From positions 1 to 13,935 of the forward strand of contig JAKADD010000020.1 of assembly GCA_021820825.1 (NCBI GenBank): a stretch of 13,935 nucleotides of DNA. Reading direction: 5' to 3'. Position 1 is the stretch's first letter, and each line of letters begins with the position of its first letter. A program made the position numbers and the translations under genes. Below the pieces are notes generated by a model. It searched no databases, had not been told where the DNA came from, and worked only from the letters and a program-made list of their open reading frames with translations. The stretch is from Bacillota bacterium. Lineage in GTDB: Bacteria; Bacillota; Bacilli; Alicyclobacillales; SLC66. Shown one piece after another: positions 532-13,935 of this stretch.

Positions 532-1611
532 TTAGACGGCGTTCACTACCACAACCAACCGCAACTCATCCAGCACATCCTGCATCCGCAACTCCATGCA
601 CGCCATGGAAACGTCCGCCGCGCCGTAGTAGATCCGCAATCTGTCCTTTATGACAACGGCCCCGCAGGTGAACACGACATTGGAGAAAAATCCCGATATT
701 TCATACTGTTCTTCCGGAATCAGCAGCGGACGATCCGTACGGGCCAGCACGACCGAGGGATCATGAAGATCCAGCAGAGTCGCTCCCAGGCAATACCGGC
801 CCTGCCCATCCACGGCATGATAGATTTCCAGCCAGCCGTCTGGCGTTCGAATCGGCGCCGCACCCGCGCCAATTCGCCTGCAATCCCAAAAATTCTGGCG
901 CAAACCCAGCAGAAAGCGGTGATTCCCCCAATGGACCAAATCCCTGGATTCCGCGATCCACATCTCCGGAGCGCCGAACCCACTCGGCACCGGACGGTGA
1001 ATGGCGTAGTAACGTCCATTGATCATCTCAGGAAACAGGACGACGTCTTTATTTTCAGGGGGAAATATGACGCCGTGTCGGACTGCGCCTGTAAAATCCG
1101 GTGTGGACGCCAGCCCCACGCAGGCTCCCAGTCTGGAAACGGCCGTGTATGCAATATAATACTGATCGCCGATCTTTGAACACCGGGGGTCCTCAATCCC
1201 GTAAGCGTCCAATTCGTCGTGCGGAAACAGAAACGCCCTATCCTCAATGGTAAAATGGTGGCCATCCCGACTGCGCGCCAACCGGAGATACGAAATGGAC
1301 GTCAGGAATGAAGAGGTGAAGGGATCGCGGCCCCGAATCACACGCGGGTCCGAAAAATCGTAGCGGACATCGTCTGCGTTTAGCCGCACGAACACCACAC
1401 CGCGGACCGCTGGATCATACACTGGCGCCACAATTTCCCCTCGCTCTGGCAAAGCGGCGCTCTCCGCGACACGGAGAATCAGGATGATTTCCTCTTCAAA
1501 CACGGCTGTGGCGGCATTGAACACTCCCACCACTTTACAGCCCGGTATGATCGGCGTCACGTCCTCGGGAGTAATCAATGGGTTAGCATGGTAACGCTCG
1601 ATTGAAACCAC
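532..1611 (-). CDS. GH130-family glycoside phosphorylase (probable beta-mannoside phosphorylase)
   Basis: This 359-residue protein is a five-bladed beta-propeller phosphorylase of family GH130. Members cleave beta-mannosides with phosphate, releasing mannose 1-phosphate. Visible family landmarks are YDFSDPR (84-90), RSRDGHHF (113-120), GIEDPR (138-143, holding a candidate catalytic Asp141), NKDVVLFPE (188-195), IHRP (204-207), RIGAGAAPI (246-254), WLEIYHAVD (260-268) and YYGAADVSMA (328-337). From memory the overall pattern resembles the Listeria Lin0857 type (beta-1,2-mannobiose phosphorylase), but linkage specificity cannot be read from sequence alone. There is no signal peptide, so it acts in the cytoplasm on imported sugar. 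The start is GTG 1611, preceded by AAGGAAG at good spacing. It is the last gene of the importer operon, 47 bases after the second permease. Confidence 0.88.
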   Translation of the reverse strand: MVSIERYHANPLITPEDVTPIIPGCKVVGVFNAATAVFEEEIILILRVAESAALPERGEIVAPVYDPAVRGVVFVRLNADDVRYDFSDPRVIRGRDPFTSSFLTSISYLRLARSRDGHHFTIEDRAFLFPHDELDAYGIEDPRCSKIGDQYYIAYTAVSRLGACVGLASTPDFTGAVRHGVIFPPENKDVVLFPEMINGRYYAIHRPVPSGFGAPEMWIAESRDLVHWGNHRFLLGLRQNFWDCRRIGAGAAPIRTPDGWLEIYHAVDGQGRYCLGATLLDLHDPSVVLARTDRPLLIPEEQYEISGFFSNVVFTCGAVVIKDRLRIYYGAADVSMACMELRMQDVLDELRLVVVVNAV

Positions 1612-1658
1612 AATGTTCTTCCTTCCGGTACCGCGAAATGTGACGATCGTATGCTGAC

Positions 1659-2540
1659 TTATCCCTTTGTTCCTGACATCAGAATTCCCTGGATAAAGTA
1701 GCGCTGTCCAATGAAGAAAATGACGATCATCGGCAGCATGATGACTGCCGAAGCCGCCATGATGTAGTTCCAGTTGGAGTGGAAGATGCCCTCAAATTCC
1801 GTCAGCCCGATCTGCAGCGTATACAGCTTCTGGCTATTCAAATAAATCAGAGGTCCCAGAAAATCATTCCAGGCGCCCTGAAACGAAAAGATGGCCACGG
1901 CGGTGAGCGCGCTCTTGGACAAGGGGAGATAGATGCGCGAAAAAATCGTCCACTCCCCGGCGCCGTCGATATAGGCCGCGTCTTTCAACTCAGGCGGAAT
2001 GTTCATAAAGAACTGCCTGATCAGGAAGACGTAAAAGGCAGATCCAAAGAAGGCTGGAACGATCAGCGGCGCAAATGTGTTGATCCACCCCAACTTGTAA
2101 TACATGATAAACTGGGGCACCAGCAAAATCTGTCCCGGCACCATCAAGGTGGCCAGCATGACGATAAACAGGACATTGCGCCCAGGAAAACGAAACCGGG
2201 CAAATCCGTAGGCGACAAAAGCACTCGAAAACACGTTGCCCACCGTGACCAGCACAGCGATGGCCAGCGTATTGAGCGCGAATTGCCCAAACGGCAACGA
2301 GGTAAGCGCAATCGCAAAATTGTTCCATTCCGCCGGATGGGGGATCCAGACCTGCGGAAAGACAAAAATTTGATCAGACGGCTTGACGGCGCTTGAGATC
2401 AACCAGAACAGCGGAATGAGAAAACAGAACGATGTCGCCATCAGCAGAAGATAGATAAACAATCGATAGACGCGCCTGCGCGCACCGCCTGAAACCTGAA
2501 CGCGGACGCTGTGCGGTCTGGTCGCTGGCGTGGTTTTCAC
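1659..2540 (-). CDS. Sugar ABC transporter permease, MalG-like (CUT1 family)
   Basis: This 293-residue integral membrane protein is the second permease of a carbohydrate importer. A short basic N-terminus precedes a first hydrophobic segment at about 28-50, and further membrane segments follow at about 85-112, 122-145, 158-178, 210-232 and 260-283. The cytoplasmic EAA loop that docks the ATPase is at about 184-207 (LKDAAYIDGAGEWTIFSRIY, then LPLS). The start is GTG 2540, sharing one base with the TAG stop of the upstream permease (TAGTG). The ribosome binding site GGGGGTGA lies about nine bases before it, so the two permeases are probably translationally coupled. The substrate is inferred from the neighbouring GH130 and DUF1861 genes to be a mannoside. 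Confidence 0.93.
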   Translation of the reverse strand: MKTTPATRPHSVRVQVSGGARRRVYRLFIYLLLMATSFCFLIPLFWLISSAVKPSDQIFVFPQVWIPHPAEWNNFAIALTSLPFGQFALNTLAIAVLVTVGNVFSSAFVAYGFARFRFPGRNVLFIVMLATLMVPGQILLVPQFIMYYKLGWINTFAPLIVPAFFGSAFYVFLIRQFFMNIPPELKDAAYIDGAGEWTIFSRIYLPLSKSALTAVAIFSFQGAWNDFLGPLIYLNSQKLYTLQIGLTEFEGIFHSNWNYIMAASAVIMLPMIVIFFIGQRYFIQGILMSGTKG

Positions 2541-3451
2541 TAGGAAGATTCACCCCCGTAGTACACCCAGAGAGCAGAACTGCGAAAGACCAACAGGGAC
2601 AGCAGCATGACAATCAGAAACAAAGCCCATCCCAAGGCTGACGCGTAACCCATCTGCAGTTCACTGAACGCTTTTTGATACAGGTAGAGAGAGTAAAAGA
2701 GACCTGAGTTGGAGACGCCTGCCCCAGTACCCGTACCCTGTCCAATCACAAATGCCTGCGTAAAAAAACTGAATGCGCCGACGATTCCCATGACGAGATT
2801 AAAGAAGAGCACGGGTGAGATCATGGGCAGCGTCACGTGCCAGAACTTGGCCCACACTCCCGATCCATCAAGCACGGCGGCTTCATACAGCTCTGCAGGC
2901 ACATTTTGCAGACCCGCCAAAAAGATGACCATCCAGGTGCCGAGTCCCCAAATGCTCATGATCACATAACCAGGCACCGTGGTTTGCGGCGTCAGAAACC
3001 ATTGCGGTTGGGGCAATCCGATCGTCTTTAAAAACGTGTTCAGGATCCCGTACGCCGGATTCAGAATCCAGATCCAGAGCATCGAGATCGCCACCGGCGG
3101 AAGCAGCGCCGGCAGATAAAAGATTGTACGAAAAAGAGGCATGAAGCGCACATTCTGATTCAGCATAATTGCCAACACAAGAGCAACGATGAGATCGATG
3201 GGAACGGCCAGCAACGCATAGTAAAAGGTCACCTGCAATGACAGCCAGAAGTTCGAATCCCCAAACATATGCGCATAGTTTTGCAGTCCAATGAATTGCG
3301 GCGAAGAAAGCAGGTTGTAGTTGGTCATGCTGATGATCAGGGATGCGATCAATGGGCCCGCGACAAAGACGATGAACCCTATTATCCACGGCGAAATAAA
3401 TAGGTATCCCATGGCTGTTTCCCGGCGTGGACGCCTCATGACTCTCTGCAC
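2540..3451 (-). CDS. Sugar ABC transporter permease, MalF-like (CUT1 family)
   Basis: This is the first permease of the CUT1 importer, about 303 residues with six expected membrane segments beginning at GYLFISPWIIGFIVFVAG. The EAA loop reads ELYEAAVLDGSGVWAKFWHV followed by TLP, in the C-terminal half. An upstream ATG at 3481 is also in frame, but I prefer GTG 3451. It has AGGAGG (3460-3465) eight bases ahead, and the ATG would lie inside the GC-rich hairpin 3471-3495 with no ribosome binding site. The gene overlaps the next permease by one base. No ATPase gene is present in the locus, so a shared MsmX/MsmK-type ATPase encoded elsewhere is likely. Confidence 0.92.
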   Translation of the reverse strand: MQRVMRRPRRETAMGYLFISPWIIGFIVFVAGPLIASLIISMTNYNLLSSPQFIGLQNYAHMFGDSNFWLSLQVTFYYALLAVPIDLIVALVLAIMLNQNVRFMPLFRTIFYLPALLPPVAISMLWIWILNPAYGILNTFLKTIGLPQPQWFLTPQTTVPGYVIMSIWGLGTWMVIFLAGLQNVPAELYEAAVLDGSGVWAKFWHVTLPMISPVLFFNLVMGIVGAFSFFTQAFVIGQGTGTGAGVSNSGLFYSLYLYQKAFSELQMGYASALGWALFLIVMLLSLLVFRSSALWVYYGGESS

Positions 3452-3470
3452 TGGCATCGCCTCCTGTGAC

Positions 3471-3495
3471 GGGGCCCCCATCGCTTGGGGGCCCC
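3471..3495 (-). promoter_or_regulatory. GC-rich intercistronic hairpin between binding-protein and permease genes
   Basis: GGGGCCCCCA and TGGGGGCCCC form a perfect ten-pair stem around a five-base loop. It sits 16 bases after the binding-protein stop and ahead of the permease ribosome binding site. No T-tract follows, so it is more likely an mRNA 3'-end stabiliser or partial attenuator that raises binding-protein expression over the permeases than a full terminator. Confidence 0.7.
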
Positions 3496-3510
3496 ACTTG
3501 CCCTGATCGA

Positions 3511-4818
3511 TCAGCCGTTAGGATTCTTCAAGTAGTTGTTCATGTCGGTTTCCGCCTTTTGGGCGGCCGCTTTGGCACTGGAGGTGCCGAGCAGGATCGG
3601 ATCATACAAGTCGTTGGTCTCGATGTTGTAATAATTGGTCATGTTCTGCATGGGCCGCAAAGAACGGGCAAATTTCATCGAGTCCAGAATGATCGGAATC
3701 CGCGCAGCGGGGATGTGCCCGCCCGGAGCAGAGTTGACGTAGATGGTTTTCAGCCTCTGCGCATATTGCCTGATCGGCGGCGCAACGTGTGTATGCGCAT
3801 ACGCGGTCAATATATCCAGATAGGCCTGCACCACCAGCTTCGGATTGGCCGCCTTCGCATTCACCGCAATTTCCGCGACATAGTCGCCTGTCACTTGCTG
3901 CGTACCACGAGGTATCGGCGCAATCGCAGTGTTGATCCGATGGTTGCCATACGTGTAGTTGCCGTCATTGGCGCCGCCGAGGAACATGGCCACTTTGCCC
4001 TGTCGGAACAGGTCTTCGATGTTCAGGTTTTCGATCTGCGCCTGTGGGGGGATGATTTTGTCTCGCACCATCGTTTGCATGAGCTCGATGCCCTTCAGAT
4101 CGGCAGGACTGGTTAATTCGGCCCGCGTTCCCTGTGGATTAAACATGTGGCCGCCATACGACCAGATGTACGTTTCCAGCGGCGGCCAACCGCTGGCTTG
4201 CAGATAACCGAACTGATGCTTCGCTGGAACCGTGAGCGCCTTCGCATCCCGCAGAAACTGGGTCCATGTCCAATTTGCAGTCGGCATTGGCAGATGCGCG
4301 GCCTTAAACAACTGCGGGTTGTAATACATCACGTAAGGCTGATCGATGAAGGGCAATGCATAGTACTTCCCGCCTATACGATCCCCGGCCAGAGATGCAG
4401 GATAGTAGTTTTGCGGATTTGCCGCCAGATACTGTTTCTTTAACTGCTGTAAGTACGGACTCAGAGCAAGCAGAGTGTGATTCGCGGCGAATGAAGATAC
4501 AAATCCATAATCCACGTAAAAGAAGTCAGGAGCGTCACCGGCGGCCAGTTCTGTAAGCAGTTTTTGGTCATATCCGGAAGGCGGTGTGTACACCGGTTTG
4601 ATAATAAACCGGCCGCGATTCGCATGATTGATTTCATTTAGCAGCTTCACATGACCGGGATGAGCCGACCAGGGAATCCACGATCCAAACGTGATGACTG
4701 GCACATTTTTTGCCGCCGCGGGTTTTGCCGCCGCAGACACCGAGGAACACCCCGCCAGAAGGGAAAGTGATGAAAGAACTGCCGCAAACGAAAGTAGTCT
4801 ATTTGTCTTTTTTGACAT
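3511..4818 (-). CDS. Carbohydrate ABC transporter substrate-binding lipoprotein
   Basis: This 435-residue extracellular solute-binding protein (family 1, CUT1 type) captures the sugar at the outer face of the membrane and delivers it to the two downstream permeases. The N-terminus MSKKTNRLLSFAAVLSSLSL is a lipoprotein signal with the lipobox L-A-G-C; Cys24 would be lipidated. An Ala/Lys-rich linker follows. Landmarks are VITFGSWIPW, LLTELAAGDAPDFFYVD, YYALPFIDQPYVMYYNPQLF and VAMFLGGANDGNYTYG. Longer in-frame starts exist up to 4893, but ATG 4818 puts the basic n-region at the very start and follows AAAAAGGGGGA. An ATG at 4848 with AAAGAGG is an alternative. It is the first gene after the promoter at 4996-5024, with a leader of about 170 bases. 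Confidence 0.92.
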   Translation of the reverse strand: MSKKTNRLLSFAAVLSSLSLLAGCSSVSAAAKPAAAKNVPVITFGSWIPWSAHPGHVKLLNEINHANRGRFIIKPVYTPPSGYDQKLLTELAAGDAPDFFYVDYGFVSSFAANHTLLALSPYLQQLKKQYLAANPQNYYPASLAGDRIGGKYYALPFIDQPYVMYYNPQLFKAAHLPMPTANWTWTQFLRDAKALTVPAKHQFGYLQASGWPPLETYIWSYGGHMFNPQGTRAELTSPADLKGIELMQTMVRDKIIPPQAQIENLNIEDLFRQGKVAMFLGGANDGNYTYGNHRINTAIAPIPRGTQQVTGDYVAEIAVNAKAANPKLVVQAYLDILTAYAHTHVAPPIRQYAQRLKTIYVNSAPGGHIPAARIPIILDSMKFARSLRPMQNMTNYYNIETNDLYDPILLGTSSAKAAAQKAETDMNNYLKNPNG

Positions 4819-4910
4819 TTGAATTATTTTCCCCCTTTTTAGATACATAAGACCTCTTTTTGAACATCCGCATATGCAAAATTCGCCGTTCATTCCTCCT
4901 TTCGATGGGG

Positions 4911-4924
4911 GTTAAGCGCTTCCA
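4911..4924 (-). promoter_or_regulatory. cre-like site in the operon leader
   Basis: The minus strand reads TGGAAGCGCTTAAC, centred on the palindrome AAGCGCTT. It matches most positions of the CcpA consensus TGNAANCGNTNNCA but lacks the final CA. It lies about 70 bases downstream of the predicted transcription start, where CcpA would act as a roadblock. Carbon catabolite repression of a mannoside operon would be expected, but the match is imperfect. Confidence 0.5.
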
Positions 4925-4995
4925 TGGCCGTCAACGGATCATCAAAGCACACCTCTCTTACAAAACGGCCGTATATTTCTTTCGTTCTGTACATA

Positions 4996-5024
4996 AGTAT
5001 ATGAATGATAGATTATCCTGTCAA
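4996..5024 (-). promoter_or_regulatory. Sigma-A promoter of the importer operon
   Basis: TTGACA (5019-5024) and TATACT (4996-5001) are separated by exactly 17 bases on the minus strand. It starts 20 bases after the stop of the ROK gene, so the importer genes can be transcribed separately from the regulator. A CTAG-TTTT-CTAG repeat at about 5036-5048, just upstream of the -35 and overlapping the ROK stop, could be an operator half-site pair, but this is weak. Confidence 0.8.
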
Positions 5025-5044
5025 CACGCATCCCTTCTAGTTTT

Positions 5045-6211
5045 CTAGTCAATCAGTTGCGTATGGTCGTACACATTCTGAAGCGCCAGTGCGGCTGCAC
5101 CAATAGCCACTGCGCTAATGCCAAAGCTTGTGGGGATGACCTCGACCTCACTGCTTTGGCAGAGTTTTCGAATCCGCTCCTGCGTCTCCCGAACCATATA
5201 CTCTGCCGAAAGCAGAGTGCGTCCGCCTAAAATCACGATATCGGGATCGAATACCTGCATGAAATTAAAAATGCCAACGCTCAGATACGAAAGCCCCCGA
5301 TCCACCACTTCACGTTCTGGGCTGCTGCCTTGAATTGCTTGCTGAATGATCGAGTGTACGTTCTCCCCCTGATCGACGTGACGCGCCTCACGAACGGCGG
5401 CCATCATTGCATACGCGGACGCCGCAGTATTGACACACCCTCTGCGTCCACAGCTACAAAGGGAGCCATTCATATCGACGATGGTGTGACTGAATTCGCC
5501 AGCCGTGTTTTTCGCGCCGCAATAGATCGAACGATGAATCGCCATGCCCGCGCCCACGCCCGCATCCGCGAGCACAAACAGGATATGGTTGAAATCATTG
5601 CCCAGCCCAAACCATGTCTCTCCAAGCGCCGCCGCGTCGGCGTCATTGGCTAAAAACGCCGACACACCGAGTTGACTCTGGAAGAGTTCCACGAGTTGCA
5701 GTTCATGCCACTGCACACCGATATCATCGGTCGCCAGCAACTGGCCCTTCACAGGATCAAGCGGTCCAGGCGCCGCGATGCCGACACCGATTACGTTAGC
5801 CAGATCGAGTCCTGAGCGCACGATAAAACGGCTGACGAATTCAATCAGCTGGCTGGCGTTCGTAAGGGAGGCTACTTCAATTTCCTCCTCACGGATCACC
5901 TCGCACAGTAAATTTACGCAGACAAAGCGAGCATAGACTCGTCCCAGTTCAATCCCGATCGCCCCCGCCGCCTGCGCACGAATCTGCAAGAGTATGGCCG
6001 GACGGCCCCCGGTTGAATCGTCCGGACCCATCTCCTCCAGCCACCCCTTCTGCAGCAGAGTGTCCACAATGCGCATCACCGTTGGCGTGGCAATGCGAAT
6101 CTCTCTTCCCAAATTGGACCGCGAAATTTTCCTGTGCATTCTGACTGTGTTGAGAATTCTTCTTTCGTTCAACAGGCGCAGCAAAGAAGATCGAGTTTCC
6201 AGTTCCGACAT
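5045..6211 (-). CDS. ROK-family transcriptional regulator (NagC/XylR-like)
   Basis: The 388-residue protein has an N-terminal winged helix (about 10-62, including SRSNLGREIRIATPTVMRIV) and a C-terminal ROK sugar-kinase-like domain. The domain keeps GIAAPGPLD (144-152), ANDADAAALGE (188-198, with the Asn-Asp pair), GVGAGMAI (218-225) and the zinc motif CSCGRRGC (252-259) with His242 in GEFSHTIV; the usual Gly before that His is Ser here. ROK regulators usually repress sugar genes and release DNA on binding a sugar or sugar phosphate. Its place between the DUF1861 enzyme and the importer suggests it controls both promoters, with mannose or a mannoside as effector; this is inference. The start is ATG 6211 with ACAGGTG upstream. 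It lies 23 bases after the DUF1861 gene and is probably cotranscribed with it. Confidence 0.9.
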   Translation of the reverse strand: MSELETRSSLLRLLNERRILNTVRMHRKISRSNLGREIRIATPTVMRIVDTLLQKGWLEEMGPDDSTGGRPAILLQIRAQAAGAIGIELGRVYARFVCVNLLCEVIREEEIEVASLTNASQLIEFVSRFIVRSGLDLANVIGVGIAAPGPLDPVKGQLLATDDIGVQWHELQLVELFQSQLGVSAFLANDADAAALGETWFGLGNDFNHILFVLADAGVGAGMAIHRSIYCGAKNTAGEFSHTIVDMNGSLCSCGRRGCVNTAASAYAMMAAVREARHVDQGENVHSIIQQAIQGSSPEREVVDRGLSYLSVGIFNFMQVFDPDIVILGGRTLLSAEYMVRETQERIRKLCQSSEVEVIPTSFGISAVAIGAAALALQNVYDHTQLID

Positions 6212-7415: not shown

Positions 7416-7694
7416 ATGATGATTAAACCGATTGGCGCGAACGGACAAGTGACGTTGGGTACCAAGTATGCGGGACAGTATGTTGCCATTGAGGAAATGG
7501 AGCCGGGGGTCTGGATTCTCAAATTGGGCGATTTCATTCCTCGCAGCGAGCGTTGGCTGCATGAGCCAGCTTTCGCGGCCGAGTTGGACGAAGCGTTGGA
7601 GTGGGCTTCGACGCATGCGCGTGAAGAGATGAATCCGGACGAGTTGGAAAGGCGGCTGCAAGATGACGACAACCGTTCGTCTGGATCTCAATAA
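7416..7694 (+). CDS. Putative type II antitoxin (AbrB-like N-terminus)
   Basis: The 92-residue acidic protein sits directly ahead of, and overlaps, a RelE-like toxin gene. Its N-terminus (IGANGQVTLGTKYAGQYVAIEEMEPGVW) resembles the short beta-hairpin DNA-binding fold of SpoVT/AbrB antitoxins. Its C-terminus (about 50-88) is helical and charged, as expected for the toxin-neutralising tail. The start is ATG 7416 (or 7419), eight bases after GGGGGG. I did not recognise a named family, so the assignment rests on gene order, size, charge and the operator-like repeats upstream. Confidence 0.7.
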   Translation: MMIKPIGANGQVTLGTKYAGQYVAIEEMEPGVWILKLGDFIPRSERWLHEPAFAAELDEALEWASTHAREEMNPDELERRLQDDDNRSSGSQ

Positions 7695-7965
7695 TCCTGT
7701 ATTTCAACGTCAACTCTTTGGTTTGGATAAGCAGGAGCGCAACCAAGTCCTCAATACCCTGAGGAAATTGTCCGAGCTTACGTGGGAACAAATCTATTCC
7801 GACAAAGGACTGCGTTGGGAGCGCATCCTGACGAAGATTGGCCCTAAGGGCGAAAATTTATACAGTCTTCGCGTCAGCCATTCCTTTCGCGCTGTCGCTC
7901 ACCGGGACGGCGATTGGCTGTGCCTGGACGCAGTACACCCCGATCATGATTCCACCTATTCATAA
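7663..7965 (+). CDS. RelE/ParE-superfamily toxin
   Basis: The 100-residue protein shows the RelE/ParE C-terminal pattern LRWERI, then GENLYSLRVSHSFRAVAHRD, then WLCLDAVHPDHDSTY. Members are small ribosome-dependent mRNA interferases or gyrase poisons; which activity applies is not clear. The start ATG 7663 lies inside the antitoxin gene (32-base overlap) and is preceded by AAAGGCGG, so translation is probably coupled. The frame is intact through to the TAA at 7963-7965. Confidence 0.8.
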   Translation: MTTTVRLDLNNPVFQRQLFGLDKQERNQVLNTLRKLSELTWEQIYSDKGLRWERILTKIGPKGENLYSLRVSHSFRAVAHRDGDWLCLDAVHPDHDSTYS

Positions 7966-11007: not shown

Positions 11008-11180
11008 CTGTTTCGTTGCCTCGAACAGCAACTGCAGAGTCTCCATATACTCAAGAAAGGCTTTCCGGCCTGCCTCCGTAGCTTGGCATGTGGTACGCGG
11101 CTTCCGCTCCGCAAACGCCTTCTGAACCGTAATGTAGCCAGCCTGGTTCAAGATGCGGAAGGAAGAAACAGCTCGTCGAA
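10987..11180 (-). pseudogene. 3' remnant of a winged-helix (HTH_34/MarR-like) transcriptional regulator
   Basis: The last 60 or so residues read SSFRILNQAGYITVQKAFAE, then RKPRTTCQATEAGRKAFLEY, then METLQLLF. This is the second half of the winged-helix family in which NLSxHLRxLEEAGYVxVxK, GRKPRTTYxLTxxGRxAF and YLxxLExLL are conserved. The first helices (LGLTDGNLS region) are absent: upstream the open frame runs into unrelated sequence antisense to the plus-strand glutaredoxin gene, with no start and ribosome binding site. The gene is therefore 5'-truncated, perhaps by the rearrangement that brought in the glutaredoxin gene. Confidence 0.6.
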
Positions 11181-11216
11181 AATCACATGTTTTCGGAGGC
11201 AAGAGCGCAATAGGTG

Positions 11217-11222
11217 TATAAT
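11217..11222 (+). promoter_or_regulatory. Possible -10 of the first glutaredoxin gene
   Basis: A perfect TATAAT lies 33 bases before the GTG start and ahead of AAGGAG (11242-11247). No good -35 is seen at 16-18 bases upstream, so the promoter may need an activator. Confidence 0.4.
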
Positions 11223-11254
11223 GAACGGGAGAGAATTGATGAAGGAGATGCAAC

Positions 11255-11500
11255 GTGAACAGCAAAGTTGTCATGTATATAGTTCCGCTCTGACCAAAGT
11301 GCGCGCTTGCAAAGCGCTTCCTTTCGGCGAAAGGCATCCCTTTTGAAGAACGCAATATTTTGACGCACGGTAAATTTCGCCGTGAGATGAAGACTCTCAC
11401 CGACATCATGACAGTTCCCGTTACCGTCATTGGCAACGAAGTGGTTGTGGGATACGACGAACGCGCATTTACCGCGGCGACGGCGCAGCTTCAGATTTGA
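11255..11500 (+). CDS. Glutaredoxin-like protein with in-frame TGA at the first active-site Cys (candidate selenoprotein, UxxC)
   Basis: Reading from GTG 11255, which follows AAGGAG by seven bases, gives MNSKVVMYIVPL, then TGA (11291-11293), then PKCALAKRFLSAKGIPFEER and on to a TGA stop at 11498-11500. The total is 81 residues counting the TGA as residue 13. This is a complete glutaredoxin/NrdH-like fold: beta-strand VVMYI, active-site motif x-P-K-C, helix LAKRFL, GIPFEE, the cis-proline segment TVPVTVIG and GYDERAF. The only defect is TGA in place of the first Cys of CPKC. Two hairpins follow the TGA at SECIS-like distance (11303-11334). Read as selenocysteine this is a UPKC redox protein reducing disulfides; read as stop it is a dead gene. 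The second gene with the same change nearby favours selenocysteine. Confidence 0.75.
11303..11334 (+). promoter_or_regulatory. Candidate bacterial SECIS hairpins of the first glutaredoxin gene
   Basis: Counting from the TGA, bases 10-24 form GCGCTT-GCA-AAGCGC (six perfect pairs, loop starting with G, 16-18 bases after the TGA). Bases 27-41 form CCTTTC-GGC-GAAAGG (six pairs, loop starting with G). Known bacterial SECIS elements are hairpins inside the coding region just after the UGA, with a small loop carrying G at position one or two. Which of the two would bind SelB is unclear. Confidence 0.5.
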
Positions 11501-11563
11501 CGGTGGAGAAGCCGCACTGGCGCTCTCCAAGCCGCCGCTCCCCAAACCCGTATATCTTGGTTC

Positions 11564-11610
11564 GTAGCCCCGCATGACTTGGAAAACAGACGCCAATCAT
11601 GCGGGGCTAC
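11564..11610. repeat. Long perfect inverted repeat between the two convergent glutaredoxin genes
   Basis: GTAGCCCCGCATGA (11564-11577) pairs perfectly with TCATGCGGGGCTAC (11597-11610). TTGG and CCAA continue the stem inward after a one-base bulge, for about 18 pairs in all. It lies 63 bases after one stop and 24 bases from the other. No T-tract follows on either strand. It most likely serves both convergent genes as a bidirectional transcription end, or is a dispersed palindromic repeat. Confidence 0.7.
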
Positions 11611-11633
11611 CCACCGAGTACAACCAACAAAGC

Positions 11634-11894
11634 CTACTCCTCCTCCAGCCAGCCCGCCTCCGTGAGCAGCCCCGTGAGACCCACTGGATCGTACCCGCGC
11701 AAGAACTTGCCGCCCGCGATCACCACGGGAGCCGCCAGAGAACCCGTGAGACGGACCAGATCGTCAATCGCCCCAGATTCCCGAAACACATGCACCTCTC
11801 GAAAGGGAATGCCGCGATGCGAAAGAAACTCTTTCGCCAAACGACACTTTCCTCAGTTAGTCGTCGTGTAGACCAGGACCTCGTCCAATAGCAT
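11634..11894 (-). CDS. Glutaredoxin-like protein with in-frame TGA at the first active-site Cys (candidate selenoprotein, UxxC)
   Basis: From ATG 11894, six bases after AAGGAG, the frame reads MLLDEVLVYTTTN, then TGA (11855-11853), then GKCRLAKEFLSHRGIPFREV and on to TAG at 11634-11636: 86 residues with the TGA as residue 14. The glutaredoxin features are strand VLVYT, the motif x-G-K-C with the resolving Cys17, helix LAKEFL, the cis-proline segment AAPVVIAGG and GYDPVGL. It aligns with the plus-strand gene around the active site (U-x-K-C-x-LAK-x-FLS-x-x-GIPF) but is clearly diverged elsewhere, so it is a paralogue rather than a recent copy. A perfect eight-pair hairpin follows the TGA. Conventional calling would give only a 68-residue piece starting at a TTG (11840) without ribosome binding site. 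Confidence 0.78.
11810..11846 (-). promoter_or_regulatory. Candidate bacterial SECIS hairpin of the second glutaredoxin gene
   Basis: Counting from the TGA, bases 16-34 form GCGAAAGA-GTT-TCTTTCGC: eight perfect pairs with a three-base loop starting with G, 24-26 bases after the TGA. Below an internal loop, TGTCG (bases 7-11) pairs with CGGCA (39-43). Length, position and loop all fit the usual description of bacterial SECIS elements. Confidence 0.6.
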
Positions 11895-11959
11895 AATCCA
11901 CTCCTTAATGGATAATCGTGAAACTTTCCGGCGTCGCGAGAAAACAGGAAGAGACGATC

Positions 11960-11998
11960 CGACTGGCGCTAATCTATACAATGCCATAGCGACTGGCG
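11960..11998. repeat. Nine-base direct repeat upstream of the second glutaredoxin gene
   Basis: CGACTGGCG occurs at 11960-11968 and again at 11990-11998, 30 bases apart, in the 186-base gap between the Asp-box gene and the glutaredoxin gene. It could be a pair of activator sites. I see no strong promoter hexamers in this gap. Confidence 0.3.
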
Positions 11999-12080
11999 GA
12001 ACGCTACTTGCCGCCGCCGAAACGAAGCGGGCAACCACTATGGAACCGCACCGCCTGAGCCTGTTCAATCTCCGCATTCA

Positions 12081-13262
12081 TTATCCGCTTACTGATCGTG
12101 GCTGCACTTCTGACCATGTGCCGCCGCCATTTTTCGTTTTCCAGACGTTTGCCGACCAACCTTCGCCGTCTGCCACCGCCCACCCGATTTCCGGTGTGAC
12201 AAAGTCCACCTGAGTCAGTCCAGGCGGCGCCTTGCGCTCTGACCAATGCACGCCGTCATCCGCTGTTTCGTAAAGCCGCATCGTTATGGCGCCAGGCGGA
12301 ACAAATTCCTGACTGATGACGAAGCATGTTTTTACGTTGACGAACTGAACGTATGTGAAATCCGTACTGTTCGGTGAACGCGCCGCATTGCTCTTCATAC
12401 GCCATGTCTTCCCGCCATCGTGAGTGGTGTAGATCGCCAGCCCCCTGTTGCCGATGGCGAGAGCGCCGGTCTGACGTCCGAAAAACTGTGGTGGATAAGT
12501 GAATGCCCCGCCCGCATGCGAAGGGCTGCGCCACGCAGGCGGGAGTTCAAGCTTCTGATTGGACCAGTATCTCCCGCCGTCCGTTGTGCGCGCCGCCCAT
12601 GCTGTGGTGACATTTGTCGCCGATGTGATCCAGCCCACCGTTTGATTGATGAATGTCATGCCCAGTTTGTCGCCCCAAAACGGGATTGCGCCGTGCGATG
12701 GATCGCCTTGCGCCAGGAGACGCCATGTCCGTCCGCCGTTCGTTGTGCCAAATACTTCGGCGCCCTCGGAACCCATGGCTGCCCCCGTCACAAGCATCAC
12801 GAAACCATCTCGCCGATTCAGAAATTGTATGGTGGGTCCAGACCCGCCTTTCCCAAGCAGCGACCATCTCCAGGTACGCCCGCCGTCTGTTGTGCGCCAG
12901 ATGCGGTCGGTCGCCTTCCACCAATCGCCGTTTGGAGCAGCCGCTTGCTGCAACACCCACGCGTCAGCCATCCCAAGCGCGAAAAATCCTCCCTGCGGAA
13001 CGTAAGGCTTCGACTGCACGACAGCATTGTAGGAAAACCCTGGAGGCGAAGCGGATACCCAATCTTTGCCGCCGTCCGTGGTTCGCCAGACCCCTTTGGC
13101 TGACAACGCCCATCCATCCGTTCTATTCAACATATCCAACTGCCTGAAGTTGAGGCGAATGCTCGACGCCGACTGTGCGCTGGCTCCCGCCGCGAGCGTC
13201 ACAATGAGTGACAGCGCTGTGCCGACCACTGCCCAACTTTTGAATAATCTCCATGACGTCAT
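12081..13262 (-). CDS. Secreted Asp-box (BNR/YCF48-like) repeat protein
   Basis: The protein of about 393 residues has an N-terminal signal peptide (basic SWRLFKS, hydrophobic AVVGTALSLIVTLAAG, likely cleavage after ASA). Seven Asp-box motifs follow at fairly even spacing: TTDGGKDW, TTDGGRTW, TTNGGRTW, TTDGGRYW, THDGGKTW, TADDGVHW and TKNGGGTW. This predicts a seven-bladed beta-propeller of the sialidase/YCF48 type. No sialidase catalytic Arg/FRIP motif is visible, so an enzyme role is unlikely; a binding or scaffold role outside the cell is possible. An ATG at 13268 is in frame, but ATG 13262 is better spaced from GGGGGA. It stands alone on its transcript, with the Fic gene upstream on the same strand. 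Confidence 0.85.
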   Translation of the reverse strand: MTSWRLFKSWAVVGTALSLIVTLAAGASAQSASSIRLNFRQLDMLNRTDGWALSAKGVWRTTDGGKDWVSASPPGFSYNAVVQSKPYVPQGGFFALGMADAWVLQQAAAPNGDWWKATDRIWRTTDGGRTWRWSLLGKGGSGPTIQFLNRRDGFVMLVTGAAMGSEGAEVFGTTNGGRTWRLLAQGDPSHGAIPFWGDKLGMTFINQTVGWITSATNVTTAWAARTTDGGRYWSNQKLELPPAWRSPSHAGGAFTYPPQFFGRQTGALAIGNRGLAIYTTHDGGKTWRMKSNAARSPNSTDFTYVQFVNVKTCFVISQEFVPPGAITMRLYETADDGVHWSERKAPPGLTQVDFVTPEIGWAVADGEGWSANVWKTKNGGGTWSEVQPRSVSG

Positions 13263-13346: not shown

Positions 13347-13935
13347 TCATACCAACTGCAAGTAGAAATCGAGCGTGCGATCCACCAGTGTCGCAACCAG
13401 CGACACAAACGCCGATACATCTCCAGTTGTATGTGAACGGTCCAGGGCTGAATAGTACTCGGCCCTGCTCTCTTTCTCAATCACAATGGGAGGGTACCCG
13501 CTCTTCATTAACTCAAAATTAAGCAACAGACGCGCCGTTTTGCCATTGCCGTCGATGAAGGGATGAATCTTCACGAAATCGCTGTGCACAGCCGCCGCCC
13601 GTTCGATCGCATGTCGCTTCTGTCCATCGGTTTCATACCACTTTACGAATCGCTCCATCTCACTCTGGACATGTACGGCATCAGGCGGAATGTGCCGCGC
13701 ACCGCTGATTACAATGTTTTCCTTGCGATATACACCGGCGTGGTCATCGTCAATGCCTTTCAGAATCAGGCGGTGAATACTTCTTATTTGCCACTCCGAC
13801 AACTTCGCGTCCTTTTGAACGATCTCCAGAACGTACAGGATCGCTTCCCTGTGATTGATCGCTTCCAGGTGTTCTTTGATCGTCTTCCCGCCAACGGTAA
13901 TCCCCTCAAGGGCAACCTTGGTCTCGGACAACGTT
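13347..13935 (-). CDS. Fic-domain protein (AMPylase-like), N-terminus beyond the window
   Basis: The frame is open through the right edge, so the start lies outside; 195 residues are visible. The Fic core motif reads HPFIDGNGKTARLL, with the catalytic His near window position 13565. The family consensus is HPFx(D/E)GNGRxxR; here the first Arg is Lys and the second is kept. LSETKVALEG, GGKTIKEHLEAINHREAI, IHRLILKGI, AGVYRKENIVISG, IPPDAV and ALDRSHTTGDVSAFV match the common chromosomal Fic proteins. These transfer AMP from ATP to a hydroxyl of a target protein. The self-inhibitory (S/T)xxxE(G/N) helix expected just before LTLSETKV would lie off the window. The TTG at 13931 is not the true start. 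Confidence 0.88.
   Translation of the reverse strand, partial: TLSETKVALEGITVGGKTIKEHLEAINHREAILYVLEIVQKDAKLSEWQIRSIHRLILKGIDDDHAGVYRKENIVISGARHIPPDAVHVQSEMERFVKWYETDGQKRHAIERAAAVHSDFVKIHPFIDGNGKTARLLLNFELMKSGYPPIVIEKESRAEYYSALDRSHTTGDVSAFVSLVATLVDRTLDFYLQLV

What the first reader, a model, noticed from the sequence alone, without database searches (positions are those of the whole stretch)
11255..11894. Two convergent glutaredoxin-like genes, both with TGA exactly at the first active-site Cys
Two diverged paralogues each have a good ribosome binding site, an intact start, an intact fold downstream and one single in-frame TGA. In both the TGA replaces the first Cys of CxxC (TGA-PKC and TGA-GKC). 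Random decay would not hit the same catalytic codon twice and leave everything else intact. Seen directly: the codons and frames. Known: selenocysteine replaces catalytic Cys in redox proteins of the thioredoxin fold. Inferred: a paired selenocysteine glutaredoxin system. TGA also serves as a true stop in this window (for example the stop of the plus-strand glutaredoxin gene and the binding-protein gene), so recoding must be local.
Basis: partly seen in the sequence, partly recalled or inferred. Interest (0 to 1): 0.93.

Follow-up and report, generated by a model that had tools for sequence, protein, structure and literature searches.

The report
Two convergent predicted selenocysteine glutaredoxin genes
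Two neighbouring bacterial genes for glutaredoxin-like redox proteins each carry a UGA stop codon exactly where the first active-site cysteine belongs, and related bacteria that have the selenium-insertion genes mostly share this UGA with a conserved, predicted RNA hairpin behind it, so both genes likely make selenocysteine enzymes, a known kind of protein.

Summary
Confirmed. Plus gene 11255-11500 (TGA at codon 13, UPKC) and minus gene 11894-11634 (TGA at codon 14, UGKC) match glutaredoxin (PF00462) and are 35% identical. Among 57 relatives in 59 genomes of the order of Alicyclobacillus tolerans, 36 carry an in-frame TGA, in all 36 at the first Cys of CxxC; one has a TAG too. SelA is in 20 of 21 genomes with a TGA form and 9 of 38 others; two genomes without SelA and tRNA-Sec have TGC there. 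The four nearest genomes have selA, selB (in pieces in one), selD and tRNA-Sec. A hairpin like the published bacterial SECIS follows the UGA, at 23 nt (minus) or 32 nt (plus), with frozen wobble bases; the window's own plus copy is weak. The kind is known (UxxC glutaredoxin). New to me: this pair, at least three further UGA-coded glutaredoxin groups in the order, and database entries that start after the active site (8 of 8 found, one being the window's own). The window's own genome is not held; selenium insertion is untested.

The parts
11255..11500 (+). plus-type glutaredoxin gene, GTG start, predicted 81-aa selenoprotein (VPLUPKC), TGA stop
   Evidence: relatives; AlphaFold2 model pLDDT 92.0
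11291..11293 (+). predicted Sec codon UGA (codon 13), first position of CxxC
11318..11336 (+). predicted SECIS hairpin of the plus type; the window copy pairs contiguously only over 11320-11334 (CCUUUC-GGC-GAAAGG); loop 32 nt after the UGA
11634..11894 (-). minus-type glutaredoxin gene, ATG start, predicted 86-aa selenoprotein (TTNUGKC), TAA stop
   Evidence: relatives; AlphaFold2 model pLDDT 90.2
11853..11855 (-). predicted Sec codon UGA (codon 14), first position of CxxC
11819..11837 (-). predicted SECIS hairpin GCGAAAGA-GUU-UCUUUCGC, loop 23 nt after the UGA
11556..11618 (.). inverted repeat between the two convergent genes (22-nt arms, 86% complementary), possible shared terminator
   Evidence: the terminator scan did not list it

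Best explanation
The two convergent genes each carry an in-frame UGA at the first active-site cysteine codon of a glutaredoxin, and this UGA is most likely read as selenocysteine by the ordinary bacterial machinery, which would make both proteins UxxC selenoglutaredoxins. Proposed course (inferred from the known bacterial pathway): SelD makes selenophosphate, SelA converts Ser-tRNA-Sec(UCA) to Sec-tRNA-Sec, and SelB binds the hairpin 23 or 32 nt downstream of the UGA and delivers Sec at that codon only, so that TGA still ends other genes. The Sec selenolate would then attack disulfides and the Cys of UxxC would resolve the selenenylsulfide. Shown: codon, frame, conservation, conservation of the hairpin sequence, machinery genes in the nearest genomes. 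Predicted: the fold and the hairpin. Inferred: Sec insertion, redox activity. Unknown: the reductant and the targets.
For: TGA at the first CxxC position in 36 of 36 TGA-bearing relatives, and Cys at the second position in all 58 rows examined. SelA in 20 of 21 genomes with a TGA form against 9 of 38 without (Fisher P 6e-8, genomes not independent). Close relatives with TGC in two genomes in which SelA and tRNA-Sec were not found (G040, G041). SelA, SelD with an internal TGA and tRNA-Sec above cut-off in 4 of 4 nearest genomes, SelB above cut-off in 3 of 4 and in pieces in the fourth; controls above cut-off among 14 well-known genomes: SelA 2, SelB 2, SelD 2, tRNA-Sec 5. Anticodon UCA in 6 of 6 tRNA-Sec loci scanned. 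Hairpin of 8 pairs: mean 7.85 and 7.71 paired against 5.16 and 5.58 under synonymous recoding, not reached in 3000 draws; mean third-position entropy 0.32 and 0.28 inside against 1.14 and 1.50 outside. At least 6 pairs closing a G[GU]N loop in 33 of 38 TGA rows (second copy of the G003 pair left out), 0 of 18 Cys rows. Published SECIS model (PMC13188914, passage read): apical loop 3-9 nt, G in its first two bases, 16-37 nt from the UGA. The UGA of selD has a helix of at least 6 pairs of this kind in 4 of 7 selD loci of the four genomes.
Against: The window's own genome could not be searched. G049 has a TGA form and no SelA or tRNA-Sec (1.6 Mb, perhaps incomplete). tRNA-Sec passed the stricter filter in only 18 of the 21, and the tRNA-Sec model also rings above cut-off in 5 of 14 control genomes. 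Covariation is thin: three compensated cells in the minus type, none in the plus type. In the window the plus-type hairpin has 6 contiguous pairs, -4.2 kcal/mol alone, weaker than the model's -7.5 limit, and the minimum-energy fold of the 54 nt shows another hairpin instead. One Cys form (L066) reaches 7 of 8 pairs and another 6 at the plus-type place, without the loop pattern. Five of 38 TGA rows lack the loop-closing helix of 6 pairs. By whole-fold energy the synonymous test reached P 0.05 in only 5 of 13 and 6 of 15 sequences. In 3 of 7 selD loci the helix had 5, 3 or 0 pairs. No peptide or selenium data.
Confidence: 0.95

Rival explanations
1. The UGA is read as cysteine by a suppressor tRNA-Cys(UCA), such as the selC*-type tRNAs described in a review.
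For: Such tRNAs are reported from some anaerobic Firmicutes and other phyla (PMC7609411, passages read). The Cys relatives show that Cys occurs at this site.
Against: The UCA tRNAs in six loci are called tRNA-Sec by ARAGORN and score above Rfam's cut-off for tRNA-Sec. SelA, which makes Sec, goes with the TGA forms. A SECIS-like hairpin is kept. I made no genome-wide search for tRNA-Cys(UCA).
Confidence: 0.02
2. Both are decaying pseudogenes with one chance nonsense mutation each.
For: Nothing beyond the stop itself. One relative, L072 in G031, has a second stop (TAG) and may be decaying.
Against: The same TGA at the same codon in 36 relatives, across types only about 31% identical, Cys at the second position in all 58 rows, and low third-position variation in the hairpin.
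Confidence: 0.01
3. Sequencing or assembly error.
For: The window is an unnamed contig and could not be re-read.
Against: The same TGA stands in separate assemblies, among them an isolate genome whose contig title gives 80-fold coverage (L003).
Confidence: 0.01
4. The UGA truly ends translation and a shorter protein that starts after the active site (as the database entries have it) is the product.
For: The 8 entries found for the minus gene, one being the window's own, begin after the site.
Against: Such a product would lack the first strand and the UxxC site (models), while the stretch before the UGA is kept in frame in the relatives and has a ribosome-binding site before the upstream start.
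Confidence: 0.01

Closest known systems
Selenoprotein glutaredoxin of Clostridium oremlandii (Kim et al. 2011, reference 85 of PMC13188914; paper not held, title only seen); that PDB 7c10, titled dithiol cGrx1, is this protein is recalled
   Same: PF00462 with Sec at the first position of UxxC (table of PMC13188914); 7c10 is the best solved match by sequence to the plus protein (E 5.6e-11) and 39% identical in the fold search. Best for the minus protein is 4tr0, cGrx2 (E 3e-8).
   Different: 33-39% identical to 7c10. By its title the Clostridium protein serves a selenoprotein MsrA; in the four nearest genomes MsrA was found in 2 of 4 (one only a short match) and without TGA.
UXX-star (seleno)protein glutaredoxin-like families, NCBIfam NF041212, NF041211, NF047338, NF041114
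   Same: Glutaredoxin-like, named for Sec in the active site.
   Different: Both window proteins score below the cut-offs (49.7 and 43.1 bits against 66 for NF041212) and have UxxC; the review gives UxxT for family 1 and GxGU for family 2.
YruB-family glutaredoxin-like protein, TIGR02196, and NrdH, TIGR02194
   Same: TIGR02196 is the best NCBIfam match of both proteins when UGA is read through.
   Different: Below cut-off (62.7 and 58.1 against 88.55); that these models describe CxxC proteins is recalled.
Bacterial SECIS element (model in the Fig. 2 legend of PMC13188914, read)
   Same: Loop with G in its first two bases, N1-G[G/U]N-N2 pattern, 23 and 32 nt after the UGA.
   Different: The window's plus-type hairpin alone is weaker than the model's energy limit.

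Membership tests
Glutaredoxin (PF00462) | Score above the Pfam gathering cut-off and glutaredoxin fold | tested here: met
   61.4 and 45.9 bits against 22.9 (UGA read through); AlphaFold2 pLDDT 92.0 and 90.2; top Foldseek match of both models is a glutaredoxin, 3ic4
Bacterial selenoprotein | In-frame UGA aligned with Cys of non-selenoprotein homologues | tested here: met
Bacterial selenoprotein | UGA conserved in relatives | tested here: met
   36 of 57 relatives, all 36 at the same codon
Bacterial selenoprotein | SECIS hairpin 16-37 nt downstream with G in the first two loop bases | tested here: met
   clear for the minus type; in the window's plus type the place and loop fit but the energy of the hairpin alone does not
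Bacterial selenoprotein | selA, selB, selC, selD in the same genome | tested here: inconclusive
   Own genome not held. Present in the four nearest genomes, SelB in pieces in G001
Bacterial selenoprotein | Selenium or Sec shown in the protein | not testable with these tools
   needs 75Se labelling or mass spectrometry
UXX-star family (NF041212) | Score above NCBI's cut-off | tested here: not met
   49.7 and 43.1 bits against 66; 0 of 4 nearest genomes over cut-off
YruB family (TIGR02196) | Score above NCBI's cut-off | tested here: not met
   62.7 and 58.1 bits against 88.55
selC*-type UGA-to-Cys suppression | A Cys-type tRNA with anticodon UCA | tested here: inconclusive
   Only six tRNA-Sec loci were scanned (6 of 6 tRNA-Sec); no genome-wide search for tRNA-Cys(UCA)

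The most novel reading that the evidence does not exclude
Alicyclobacillus-like Bacillota run a diversified selenoglutaredoxin network: at least five separately UGA-coded glutaredoxin groups, up to three per genome, most with their own SECIS hairpin, in which Sec and Cys have been exchanged repeatedly and in which the convergent pair of the window acts as a Sec-to-Sec electron relay.
Probability: 0.12. Interest if true: 0.6.

Novelty: new member of a known kind. Interest (0 to 1): 0.4.

Why it matters
It adds likely glutaredoxin selenoprotein groups to an order of Bacillota that includes Alicyclobacillus; two searches of the open library for Alicyclobacillus with selenoprotein or selenocysteine gave 8 and 5 papers, none about this by its title (listings only). 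The database entry of a named isolate starts after the active site, so the catalytic half is missing there. TGA and Cys versions occur within each of the two types in related genomes, which makes a natural set for measuring what Sec gains in this fold.

Tried and rejected
UXX-star or YruB membership: rejected, below cut-off. Tandem Sec-Grx with Sec-MsrA as in C. oremlandii: not supported, MsrA in 2 of 4 genomes and without TGA. Bacillithiol as reductant: BshA above cut-off in 1 of 4 (A. tolerans), so not general. The pair as a fixed unit: side by side only in the window and in G003; G002's window-like locus keeps the plus gene but lacks about 0.4 kb with nearly all of the minus gene. Third group (L095 and its kin): its whole-fold energy was not special under synonymous recoding (0 of 6), though 4 of 6 have the loop-closing helix. 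No Rfam family at gathering threshold and no tRNA in the window. Rows dropped: the tree left out L072 (two stops), L104 (fragment) and L078 (second copy of the G003 pair); one search did not re-extract three Cys hits (G001:C74, G002:C248, G003:C81); searches left out L069 (protein identical to L070), L072 and the second copy L078; one search's Cys comparison used 7 of the 18 Cys rows.

Papers: PMC13188914, PMC7609411 and PMC5029168 (passages read; the last has no Alicyclobacillus or glutaredoxin); deep-Sep PMC12013277 (term search only, none found). Haft and Tolstoy 2025 and Kim et al. 2011 are not held; only their titles were seen in a reference list. Other papers were seen in search listings only.

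Full report
WHAT IS THERE. The plus gene runs 11255-11500 (GTG start, stop TGA) and the minus gene 11894-11634 (ATG start, stop TAA). Each has one internal stop, a TGA at codon 13 and 14. Read through, both match Pfam glutaredoxin PF00462 (E 9.7e-17, 6.6e-12) and are 35% identical to each other. AAGGAG stands 7 and 6 nt before the starts. AlphaFold2 gives confident models for both (pLDDT 90.2 and 92.0), and the top Foldseek match of each is a glutaredoxin (3ic4).

RELATIVES. A protein search with the minus gene gave 8 entries (51-83 aa), every one starting after the active site; one (P0004) is the window's own, one is named glutaredoxin family protein of Alicyclobacillus tolerans, one that of a Bacilli MAG. 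The plus gene gave one fragment. A scan of one genome per species gave five loci: three Bacillota MAGs, A. tolerans BL-1 and a distant Burkholderiales protein with an ordinary Cys. In the first four the DNA has TGA at the same codon. A. tolerans also has a convergent plus-type gene (59% identical) with TGA.

SURVEY. A profile of seven sequences was run on all 59 held genomes of the order of A. tolerans: 57 hits in 27 genomes, 36 with one TGA (one of these also with a TAG), 21 without a stop. I re-extracted 54 of the 57, plus the window's two and a second copy of the G003 pair, 58 rows: in all 40 TGA rows the TGA is at the first CxxC position, in all 18 others that codon is TGC or TGT, and the second Cys is present in all 58. 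By sequence and tree the hits include the minus type, the plus type, a third group (YSQxxU, six genomes) and two single forms in G044, so at least five UGA-coded groups. The tree has few columns (79) and many open forks; it needs 7 changes between Sec and Cys, at least 3 forced by well supported branches. Cys forms lie within or beside both window types.

MACHINERY. SelA above cut-off in 29 of 59 genomes (control: 1 of 14 well-known genomes, E. coli), tRNA-Sec in 27 of 59 under stricter filters (control 3 of 14). SelA is in 20 of the 21 genomes with a TGA form and in 9 of the 38 others (Fisher P 6e-8; the genomes share ancestry, so P is only a guide). tRNA-Sec is in 18 of the 21 (missing in G049, G054, G055). 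G049 (1.6 Mb) has neither; its protein row is identical to that of G050, which has both. In G040 and G041 SelA and tRNA-Sec were not found and close relatives have TGC. The four genomes nearest to the window have SelA (4 of 4), tRNA-Sec (4 of 4), SelD with an own TGA (4 of 4) and SelB above cut-off (3 of 4; in G001 in pieces at contig ends). Controls above cut-off among 14 genomes in these calls: SelA 2, tRNA-Sec 5, SelB 2, SelD 2. ARAGORN calls six of six scanned tRNA-Sec loci tRNA-SeC with anticodon tca. The window's own genome is not held, so for the window this is inference from relatives.

HAIRPIN. Thirteen minus-type sequences share GCGAAAGA-GUU-UCUUUCGC or close variants at nt 19-37 counted from the U of UGA; fifteen plus-type sequences (14 different) share UUCCUUUC-GGN-GAAAGGAA or close variants at nt 28-46. 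98.1% and 96.4% of cells pair. Compensatory change is small: C-G to U-A in three minus-type sequences, none in the plus type. Under synonymous recoding with the window's codon use the observed mean pairing (7.85 and 7.71 of 8) was not reached in 3000 draws (means 5.16 and 5.58), and third codon positions vary less inside the hairpin (mean entropy 0.32 and 0.28) than outside (1.14 and 1.50). Seven Cys forms have 2-4 pairs at the minus place and 2-7 at the plus place (L066 has 7, L067 has 6). Looking for a helix of at least 6 pairs closing a G[GU]N loop 16-37 nt after the codon: 33 of 38 TGA rows (second copy of the G003 pair left out), 0 of 18 Cys rows, and 6 of all 508 TGA triplets in the window, the two Sec codons among them. 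Place and loop fit the SECIS model quoted in PMC13188914. At the UGA of seven selD loci of the four genomes the same measure gives 7, 7, 7, 6, 5, 3 and 0 pairs. Against it: the window's plus-type helix has only 6 contiguous pairs, -4.2 kcal/mol, and the 54-nt minimum-energy fold there shows another hairpin; judged by energy alone the test was significant in 5 of 13 and 6 of 15 sequences, 0 of 6 of the third group, 0 of 2 of the G044 forms and 1 of 18 Cys forms.

FUNCTION. By family the proteins would be thiol-disulfide oxidoreductases with Sec as attacking residue and Cys as resolving residue (inferred). The reductant is open: BshA passes its cut-off only in A. tolerans. The Sec-MsrA partner of the Clostridium protein is not seen. 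In A. tolerans the plus-type gene follows a run of four open frames on the same strand that look by eye like cysteine desulfurase and NAD synthesis genes (not searched against families). In G058 and G059 it lies tail to tail with a selD gene.

KNOWN OR NEW. Sec-containing glutaredoxin with UxxC is a known selenoprotein family (table of PMC13188914); the nearest solved relative of the plus protein is 7c10, titled dithiol cGrx1. The window proteins miss the cut-offs of the UXX-star and YruB models. Searches for Alicyclobacillus with selenoprotein (8 papers) and with selenocysteine (5 papers) listed no title on this subject (listings only, open-licence papers only). So: new members of a known kind.

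Noticed in passing
L021 (G002:C6), against window 11164-12621: A locus about 94-96% alike in a relative keeps the plus gene but lacks about 0.4 kb that hold nearly all of the minus gene; the two matching stretches overlap by 5 bases at the junction, which suggests a deletion (another minus-type copy is on contig C213 of that MAG).
   Followed up: partly
G002, G003, G004 (L040/L043, L042/L044, L039/L045): These genomes hold two selD genes each, both with an internal TGA (one of G004's is cut short).
   Followed up: partly
L065, L068: A plus-type glutaredoxin gene lies tail to tail with a selD gene in two genomes (G059, G058).
   Followed up: no
window 532-6211, minus strand: Operon-like run: a protein scoring 503.5 bits (cut-off 550) for a beta-1,2-mannobiose phosphorylase model, two Ugp-like ABC permeases, a binding protein and a ROK-like regulator, all below the cut-offs of the NCBIfam models listed.
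   Followed up: no
window 7416-7965, plus strand: Two small overlapping genes that look like a toxin-antitoxin pair by size and order; the first had no NCBIfam match, the second no Pfam match (one library each).
   Followed up: no
window 13347-13934, minus strand: Fic/DOC family protein (PF02661), running off the window's end.
   Followed up: no
L072 (G031): A plus-type relative with both the TGA and a TAG; perhaps a decaying copy.
   Followed up: no
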